Source: Bhargavaea sp. CC-171006
Lineage (GTDB): Bacteria; Bacillota; Bacilli; Bacillales_A; Planococcaceae
Assembly: GCF_009761675.1 (NCBI RefSeq)
Contig: NZ_QUZH01000027.1
Span: 1-64,000 of the forward strand
Length of the DNA stretch: 64,000 bases
Direction of reading: 5' to 3'
A model generated the notes under the pieces. It did not search any database, had not been told where the DNA came from, and saw nothing but the letters and a program-made list of their open reading frames with translations. The position numbers were made by a program, and so were the translations under genes. Below are positions 1 to 46,958 of this stretch, in pieces (position 1 is the stretch's first letter; the number at the start of each line of letters is the position of its first letter).

Positions 1-535
1 TCCACTACGATTCCGAAAGGAATGCCTATATCTGTCCGAACGGACAGGAACTCCGGTATTCGACCACCAATAAGCAGGGCTACCGGGAGTACAAATCGAA
101 CGGGGCCAAATGTGCAGGTTGTCCGCTGCTTGCTCAATGCACTCAAAGCAAGAATCATGTAAAAGTCATCACCCGGCATATCTGGCAGGACTACCTCGAT
201 CAGGCAGAGGCCATTCGGCTCACCCCAGAAAACAAAGAAATCTATGCAAGGCGGAAAGAGACCGTAGAACGCGGTTTCGGAGATGCCAAGGAGAAGTGTG
301 GCATGCGTTGGACAACCCTTCGTGGAAGGGCAAAAATGTCCATGCAGGCGATGCTTACTTTTGCTGCCCTGAATCTGAAGAGGTTGGCCTGCTGGACCTG
401 GGAGTCACCCGAACCGGCCTGACGGCCGGTCATTCCAAGGGGATTTAAGGAGAAAACCACGATAAATTTCCAATAAAATTACTAAACGGACCTAGAAAGA
501 TTTCATCTGGGTACGTTTTGTCTACAGTCTGAAGC
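1..535 (+). mobile_element. 3' end of an IS1182-type insertion sequence
   Basis: The window opens inside an insertion sequence. The transposase C-terminus ends at 422 and is followed by about 100 AT-richer non-coding bases. These end near a GTTTTGTCTACAGTCTGAA stretch (about 514-532) that looks like the terminal repeat of this IS group. The left end lies outside the window, so the matching repeat and any target duplication cannot be checked. Confidence 0.55.
3..422 (+). CDS. Transposase, C-terminal part (IS1182 family, cut by window edge)
   Basis: This frame is open from the first bases and gives 139 residues ending in TGA. It has no usable start because the 5' part lies outside the window. 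The visible part has a cysteine pair cluster (CAGCPLLAQC) and a VERGFGDAKEKCGMRW segment. In IS1182/DDE_Tnp_1_6 transposases this region holds the last catalytic glutamate and the Y-R-E/K-like motif. The protein would act on its own IS ends by DDE chemistry. I see no frameshift in the visible part, so whether the element is intact cannot be judged. The overlapping frame at 110-448 is a shadow. Confidence 0.8.
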   Translation, partial: HYDSERNAYICPNGQELRYSTTNKQGYREYKSNGAKCAGCPLLAQCTQSKNHVKVITRHIWQDYLDQAEAIRLTPENKEIYARRKETVERGFGDAKEKCGMRWTTLRGRAKMSMQAMLTFAALNLKRLACWTWESPEPA

Positions 536-35878: not shown

Positions 35879-35990
35879 TACGAAAGCGCAAGCGCCCGTT
35901 CAGCAACGTACGAACTGGAGCCCTTCGCAATGAGATCAAGGAAACACGGTGAGGAACGAGCCGATGTTGACTTATCGCAATGGAGAAGGG
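35879..35990. repeat. Bacillales-type intergenic repeat with AAAGCGCAAGCG core
   Basis: The stretch GTACGAAAGCGCAAGCGCCC, then GATCAAGGAAACACG and ATGTTGACTTA, resembles a dispersed repeat I recall from many Bacillus and Geobacillus intergenic regions. GTACG and CGTAC flank its left hairpin. The 12-mer AAAGCGCAAGCG also occurs between miaA and hfq (13180-13191, opposite strand). Confidence 0.5.
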
Positions 35991-36039
35991 TGAAGTTTGC
36001 CATATGGAATCAACTAAAGAAAGTTCCCCATGAAGAAAG

Positions 36040-36171
36040 GGCGGTTGCTTTCCGTTCCAGCACTCACTTTCCGCGGGCATGGCCTTAGCCCCCTCGTCGC
36101 TGCACTCCTGCGGGTTCTTCGGCTCATGCTATTCCCGCAGGAGTCTCGTGCTTCCACTCCAAGCAATCGCC
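36040..36171. repeat. Long imperfect palindromic element, copy A
   Basis: The ends GGCGGTTGCTT and AAGCAATCGCC are inverted with one mismatch. Inside, CTTTCCGCGGGC and CCCGCAGGAGTCTC face each other, with TGGCCTTAGCC and TTCTTCGGCTCATGCTATTC between. The same internal blocks recur in copy B at 46761-46918. Confidence 0.75.
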
Positions 36172-36290
36172 ATAGAAAATTCCTCCGTTCGATTCAATTG
36201 TTCGTTTTATATAGTTCTGTGCGCCGGAACTGGAGGTGGCTTACATGAGAATAATAATTGTCCGCAGCGTAAAGTTTTATATTTCCTGAG

Positions 36291-46721: not shown

Positions 46722-46958
46722 AAAAAGGGCTGTCCGAAAAGTATATTTCCAGCAGAAAAAGCAAACAGCAGTGGCTCTGGTCGCTTTCCGCGGGCGTTGC
46801 CTTAGCCGGCGCCAGTACGCAGACTGGCGTCTGTGCGCATCGCGAAGCGTTGCGCAACATCCGGGGTCTTCGGCTAACGCTATTCCCGCAGGAGTCTCCC
46901 GACGCCACTGCTGTTTGCATAGATACAAGAATTAATTACTTATTGGACATCCCCTTTT
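46722..46958. repeat. Nested hairpin element, copy B
   Basis: Outer ends AAAAAGGGCTGTCC and GGACATCCCCTTTT are inverted (12 of 14 match). Within lies a perfect 15-bp inverted repeat, GCAAACAGCAGTGGC (46761-46775) and GCCACTGCTGTTTGC (46904-46918). This encloses the CTTTCCGCGGGC ... CCCGCAGGAGTCTC blocks shared with copy A, and an extra segment with its own small hairpins. Confidence 0.75.

What the first reader, a model, noticed from the sequence alone, without database searches (positions are those of the whole stretch)
36040..36171. Two copies of the palindrome keep self-complementary but different arms
Copy A (here) and copy B (46761-46918) share inner blocks CTTTCCGCGGGC, GCCTTAGCC, CTTCGGCT and CCCGCAGGAGTCTC. 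Their outer arms differ in sequence, GGCGGTTGCTT/AAGCAATCGCC versus GCAAACAGCAGTGGC and its exact complement. Changing sequence while keeping pairing is the signature of selection on secondary structure, or of a copying mechanism that makes inverted arms. I recall similar CCGCGGG...CCCGCAGGAGTCT stretches in other Bacillales, but no established function.
Basis: partly seen in the sequence, partly recalled or inferred. Interest (0 to 1): 0.6.

Follow-up and report, generated by a model that had tools for sequence, protein, structure and literature searches.

The report
Mobile palindromes that preserve pairing
Both copies belong to a large family of small, non-coding, probably mobile palindromes scattered by the dozen through Bacillus-type genomes, whose two arms change in step so that they can always pair, apparently as DNA rather than as RNA.

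Summary
Copy B's 15-nt arms are exactly complementary. Copy A's 11-nt arms pair at 10 of 11 positions plus one G·T. The inner blocks are shared exactly. A covariance model finds 36 copies in the window's genome and 2-88 copies in 21 of 30 relatives, all in class Bacilli (outside it, 0 of about 288 genomes). On 116 copies, mostly from named Bacillales, 28 of 31 pairs show double compensatory changes and 89.8% of cells pair, against 71% when shuffled and 35-50% when slid. Wobble pairs are not favoured: G·T 83 versus A·C 85, while tRNA stems of relatives give 167 versus 14. One-strand RNA selection is therefore unlikely for the arms.

The surroundings explain the copies. Copy B is the inside of a 229-bp MITE (46726-46954) with ends GGGGCTGTCC...GGACAGCCCC. 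A sister genome has an IS1182-family transposon with those ends. Another sister has several full 187-bp MITEs, mostly 98-99% identical. At two sites a MITE sits where sisters carry a terminator hairpin. The same core also entered the leader of a second IS1182 group at two or more points. Close inverted pairs are tail-to-tail 34:1. The core matches Rfam tsr24 (S. aureus sRNA) below threshold. What the core does is unproven.

The parts
36002..36214 (+). Copy A, larger repeat unit: palindrome with about 38-43 bp AT-rich flanks; end motif TATATAAAATSAAC is clear in the G003 relative, weaker here on the left
   Evidence: 91% match over this stretch to G003:C5:214778-214990; end sequences compared; extent inferred
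36040..36171 (+). Copy A palindrome (finding)
   Evidence: R1 match 36039-36170, 122.5 bits; fold z -3.6/-3.1 as ssDNA
36040..36050 (+). Copy A left outer arm GGCGGTTGCTT
36161..36171 (+). Copy A right outer arm AAGCAATCGCC (one G.T with the left arm)
36067..36147 (+). Copy A conserved core, from CTTTCCGCGGGC to CCCGCAGGAGTCTC
   Evidence: exact shared blocks; Rfam RF02577 tsr24 match 36059-36152 on the minus strand, E 5.9e-5, 29.7 bits, below gathering 50
46726..46954 (+). MITE that contains copy B: ends [A]GGGCTGTCCGAAAAG ... CTTATTGGACATCCCC, 229 bp
   Evidence: one of 20 units found in the held loci; orthologous site in G003 lacks it and has a terminator hairpin
46761..46918 (+). Copy B palindrome
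   Evidence: R1 match 46756-46921
46761..46775 (+). Copy B left outer arm GCAAACAGCAGTGGC
46904..46918 (+). Copy B right outer arm GCCACTGCTGTTTGC, exact complement
46808..46867 (+). Copy B apical insert with its own inverted repeats (CGCCAGTACGCAGACTGGCG, GTGCGCATCGCGAAGCGTTGCGCA)
   Evidence: sequence; present also in L019 and related copies, absent from short copies
3..419 (+). C-terminal fragment of an IS1182-family transposase at the contig edge, from the IS group whose other copies carry the palindrome upstream of the gene
   Evidence: 96% identity to the intact 455-aa transposase; NCBIfam NF033551 163 bits on the fragment

Best explanation
The palindrome is the conserved inside of a family of small non-autonomous mobile elements (MITE-like, about 190-310 bp) that has spread through Bacilli. 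Copy B lies in a MITE with ends GGGGCTGTCC...GGACAGCCCC, and an IS1182-family transposase that recognises such ends is its likely mover. Copy A carries the same core in a unit with different ends. Insertion favours intergenic DNA, for the copy B type at transcription terminators, and avoids divergent promoters. The core with its arms is most likely kept as a DNA hairpin or cruciform: the shape, not the arm sequence, is constrained, so arms drift by paired changes inherited along subfamilies. Shown: mobility pattern, shared ends with an IS1182 IS, covariation, conserved mismatch loops, no wobble bias, terminator sites (two cases). Inferred: that IS1182 transposase moves the MITE in trans, that selection acts on the DNA hairpin, and what the hairpin does (best guess: it is read by the transposition or insertion process itself).
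For: Dispersed copies: 36 in the own genome, 2-88 in 21 of 30 relatives, named genera across Bacillales, plasmids. MITE unit with exact ends. Autonomous IS with the same ends, including the 17-nt right end ACTTATTGGACAGCCCC. Presence or absence at orthologous sites, with a terminator hairpin in the sisters. Insertion into IS1182 leaders at two or more points. Covariation 28 of 31 pairs, 0 of 500 shuffles; G.T 83 versus A.C 85, against 167 versus 14 in tRNA. Loop 1 keeps GNA/GNA mismatches in 77 of 108 copies. Divergent contexts 8 of 99 against 24% of background, no orientation bias in tandem contexts, 36:26.
Against: Only one autonomous IS with GGGGCTGTCC ends was seen, and it lacks the palindrome, so the MITE is not a simple internal deletion of it. 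The core occurs with several different ends, so one transposase cannot explain all copies. No clean target duplication was found for the GGGGCTGTCC MITEs. After insertion, neutral decay would also give G.T equal to A.C, which weakens that test. Some apical pairs are fixed as T.G on the + strand, as an RNA might have, and S. aureus tsr24 is listed by Rfam as an sRNA.
Confidence: 0.6

Rival explanations
1. The element makes a structured regulatory RNA and selection on that RNA keeps the arms paired.
For: Core matches Rfam tsr24, an S. aureus small RNA, on the minus strand. Purine-rich GNA/GNA loops lie on the minus strand. Some inner pairs are fixed as T.G on the + strand. In Lysinibacillus IS1182 elements the palindrome lies between the apparent promoter and the transposase start.
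Against: G.T does not exceed A.C in the arms (35 versus 47) or overall, unlike tRNA at 12:1. No orientation preference relative to neighbouring tandem genes (36:26). The tsr24 matches are below the gathering score. The two hints about the strand disagree.
Confidence: 0.2
2. Arms stay complementary without selection: template switching inside the quasi-palindrome during replication copies one arm onto the other (quasipalindrome correction, known from bacterial mutagenesis; from general knowledge).
For: Paired changes with few wobble intermediates and equal G.T and A.C mismatches are what simultaneous arm copying would give.
Against: The conserved 3x3 mismatch loops next to the arms persist across genera (77 of 108), although copying would erase them. 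Arms are shared by whole subfamilies.
Confidence: 0.25
3. The copies are REP or REPIN elements moved by a RAYT (Y1 HUH) transposase.
For: Palindromic, intergenic, many copies, and close inverted pairs are tail-to-tail 34:1.
Against: No Y1_Tnp in any of the 8 genus genomes, which hold 10-44 copies each. Ten loci with weak RAYT-like genes in relatives, and four further Y1_Tnp loci, carry no copy. Inverted partners are as different as unrelated copies.
Confidence: 0.04
4. The palindromes are bidirectional transcription terminators that spread as useful parts.
For: GGGGCTGTCC MITEs sit where sisters have terminators, often with A-runs to the left and T-runs to the right. Enriched between convergent genes (29 of 99 against 19% of background).
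Against: Copy A and most GATTTCC-type copies have no T-run after the arm. No terminator pattern was found at copy B.
Confidence: 0.1

Closest known systems
MITEs of Bacilli such as bcr1 (B. cereus group) and the stem-loop families Bhal-1 and Bant-1 listed in BMC Genomics 2008, 9:20 (PMC2267715)
   Same: Short, non-coding, intergenic, foldable, dozens of copies, terminal inverted repeats in the GGGGCTGTCC type
   Different: bcr1 is reported as specific to the B. cereus group (title of the 2004 paper cited in PMC2267715); this core crosses many genera and sits inside units with unrelated ends. Bhal-1 or Bant-1 may be the same family; their sequences could not be read here.
IS1182 family insertion sequences (NCBIfam NF033551)
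   Same: MITE ends equal those of an IS1182-family IS in a sister genome; a second IS1182 group carries the palindrome before its transposase gene
   Different: The palindrome codes for nothing and is missing from close IS1182 relatives (L384, L415-L418)
Rfam RF02577 tsr24 (S. aureus small RNA)
   Same: Core aligns along sequence and structure, E 5.9e-5 to 2e-3
   Different: 30-32 bits against a gathering score of 50; only model positions 130-203 of 238; outer arms not shared
REP elements and REPINs
   Same: Palindromes in inverted doublets
   Different: No Y1 transposase in the genus, longer (about 130 bp), partners of a doublet unlike each other

Membership tests
MITE | short, no coding capacity | tested here: met
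   186-310 bp units; longest open stretches in five of the larger units 54-95 aa
MITE | terminal inverted repeats shared with an autonomous IS | tested here: met
   copy B type: GGGGCTGTCC ends as in L160:17993-19912 with a 614-aa IS1182 transposase; not shown for copy A's ends
MITE | many near-identical copies at unrelated sites | tested here: met
   full 187-bp units in G006, mostly 98-99% identical, starting and ending at the same bases
MITE | target site duplication | tested here: inconclusive
   no clear duplication at 20 units; 11-bp (10/11) repeat around the insertion in Peribacillus IS1182 leaders
IS1182 family | IS1182 transposase gene inside the unit | tested here: not met
   the copies in the window have no gene; some relatives have the palindrome within IS1182 elements
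REP/REPIN with RAYT | Y1 (HUH) transposase in the genome, flanked by the repeats | tested here: not met
   PF01797 absent in 8 genus genomes; RAYT-like loci of relatives without copies
Rfam tsr24 | score at or above the gathering threshold | tested here: not met
   29.7-31.7 bits against 50
Rfam tsr24 | transcribed as a small RNA | not testable with these tools
   no RNA data held
Intrinsic terminator | GC-rich hairpin followed by a T-run | tested here: not met
   none found around copy B by pattern; copy A is followed by ATAGAAAA
bcr1 | sequence identity with bcr1 | not tested
   bcr1 sequence not held in the tools used

The most novel reading that the evidence does not exclude
A structure-defined DNA module that moves between transposon families: the hairpin core is captured inside units with unrelated ends and inside IS1182 leaders (at least two independent gains, each time in the same orientation), goes into terminator hairpins by hairpin-for-hairpin replacement, and keeps its arms matched by a DNA-level process.
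Probability: 0.25. Interest if true: 0.75.

Novelty: new variant of a known kind. Interest (0 to 1): 0.5.

Why it matters
Covariation is usually read as proof of a functional RNA. Here it is very strong, yet the wobble test points to DNA, so repeats like this can mislead RNA discovery pipelines; Rfam's tsr24 may be such a case. It also gives a testable system in which an IS1182 transposase, a MITE and a hairpin can be separated, and it gives an identity to a repeat that recurs across Bacillales genomes and is sometimes annotated as a small hypothetical protein.

Tried and rejected
RAYT/REPIN origin. Rfam at gathering threshold: nothing. tRNA or tmRNA in the window: none. Phage carriage: no match in the phage records and one IMG/VR contig, where the copy sits in front of an IS1182 transposase. 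Literature searches by sequence string or family name found no description of this family. Doublets as recent inverted duplications: rejected, because partners have arm identity 0.26-0.70, like copies from different species. Arms made anew at each insertion: rejected, because arms are shared by subfamilies. First tRNA control failed for lack of tRNAs and was redone.

Full report
OBSERVATION. Copy B's arms are exact complements over 15 nt. Copy A's arms pair at 10 of 11 positions, with one G·T. Copy A folds better as DNA than every one of 200 shuffles on either strand. Copy A lies between a yfmF gene and an ABC permease gene, copy B between RNase J and dapA, all on the minus strand.

FAMILY. 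A pattern search found 27 sites in the own genome. A covariance model R1, built from 14 copies, finds 36 copies in the own genome and 2-88 copies in 21 of 30 relatives, including other families of the class. In 299 genomes drawn from the phylum, only 3, all of class Bacilli, have it. Plasmids of Peribacillus, Priestia, Niallia and others carry copies.

COVARIATION. On 116 copies from the named loci and one viral contig, 28 of 31 pairs have compensatory double changes. 89.8% of cells pair, against 70.8% in shuffles (0 of 500 reach it) and 35-50% when partners are slid. The covariation score is 0.43 against 0.05-0.07 for slid versions. Caveats: the alignment was fitted to the model, the copies are related, and the named loci were selected by the core sequence, although not by the arms. 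A cleaner case is the MITE family with GGGGCTGTCC ends in one genus: three homologous 15-nt arms differ at several positions and each meets a perfect complement.

DNA OR RNA. If one strand worked as RNA, G·U should be tolerated and A·C not. Leaving out three columns that are largely fixed as G·T, the copies show G·T 83 and A·C 85; in the arms alone 35 and 47. The acceptor and T stems of 180 tRNAs from the relatives give 167 and 14. Orientation relative to tandem neighbouring genes is not biased, 36:26 (crude ORF calls). This favours a DNA-level constraint or arm copying. Neutral decay after insertion could also equalise the two mismatches, so this is strong but not final. Next to the arms, a 3x3 loop that reads GNA/GNA on the minus strand is kept unpaired in 77 of 108 copies. 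A second loop is either GNA/GNA (50 of 95) or often fully Watson-Crick paired. Simple arm copying would erase such loops.

MOBILE UNITS. Flank comparison shows larger units. Copy B is the inside of a 229-bp unit with ends GGGGCTGTCC...GGACAGCCCC; 20 such units of 186-310 bp are in the held sequences. In G006, full 187-bp units, mostly 98-99% identical, start and end at exactly the same bases. In G003 an IS with the same ends, including the 17-nt right end ACTTATTGGACAGCCCC, encodes a 614-aa transposase. NCBIfam calls it IS1182 at 428 bits. R1 finds no palindrome in that IS.

TERMINATORS. At copy B's site, G003 lacks the MITE and has a terminator-like hairpin with the same A- and T-rich shoulders. 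At G003 block position 87557 a MITE sits where four sister genomes have a terminator-like hairpin. So the MITE appears to take the hairpin's place; two sites only. Overall, copies avoid divergent intergenic regions (8 of 99 against 24% of background) and are enriched in convergent ones (29 of 99 against 19%).

SECOND IS1182 GROUP. Another IS1182 group (ends near CAGACTGTAGACAAA; in several copies the target duplication is a whole terminator hairpin) carries the palindrome between left end and transposase in the window's genus, in Peribacillus and in Lysinibacillus. Close relatives lack it (L384, L415-L418). In Peribacillus it lies upstream of the apparent promoter and is bracketed by an 11-bp repeat (10 of 11). 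In Lysinibacillus it lies between the apparent promoter and the gene. The two places imply at least two gains, both in the same orientation. Copy A's unit has other ends again.

DOUBLETS. Neighbouring copies within about 0.8 kb are tail-to-tail (+ then -) 34 times and head-to-head once; 11 are tandem (some pairs are related by descent, so the p-value is only indicative). Inverted partners are as unlike as copies from different species, while tandem neighbours are near duplicates. This recalls REPINs, but no Y1 transposase is present in the genus, and the RAYT-like loci of relatives have no copy nearby.

SITE 91K. Four genomes of the genus share the left flank (G000:C23 near 91180), yet each has a different subtype there. 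Three share outer arms CTGATT/AATCAG and one has CAGATT/AATCTG; G002 is empty. Gene conversion of cores or repeated insertion could explain this; it was not resolved.

VERDICT. Real, widespread and strongly covarying; best read as a MITE-like mobile palindrome. IS1182-type movement is likely for copy B's type, and the constraint on the arms is probably at the DNA level. The role of the core is not established.

Noticed in passing
window 35880-36002: A second dispersed repeat of about 120 bp (GTACGAAAGCGCAAGCGCCCGTTCAGC...) lies directly next to copy A and has dozens of copies at 85-96% identity in the genus. Unrelated in sequence to the palindrome.
   Followed up: no
window 3-419: The contig begins inside an IS1182 transposase; several contigs of this genome and its sisters also break at this IS.
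   Followed up: partly
G000:C23 about 91120-91380 and orthologous places in G003, G005, G007: Same left flank but four different element subtypes at one site, with outer arms changing in step; G002 is empty.
   Followed up: partly
L281:4643-5316: Four copies in tandem at regular spacing (about 185 bp) in Peribacillus frigoritolerans.
   Followed up: no
L241, L418: Records named Arthrobacter (an actinobacterium) carry the palindrome or a Bacillales-type IS1182 transposase; contamination or a misnamed strain is likely.
   Followed up: no
L423:1485-1622: The palindrome is annotated as a 45-aa hypothetical protein (WP_205664564.1) on a Priestia megaterium plasmid; probably a spurious gene call.
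   Followed up: no
L348:7148-8915: IS1182 copy flanked by a duplicated terminator hairpin (AGATCCCGAAAACCGGGATCCC); in G168 identical IS1182 copies likewise duplicate hairpin-like palindromes, so whole hairpins act as target duplications.
   Followed up: partly
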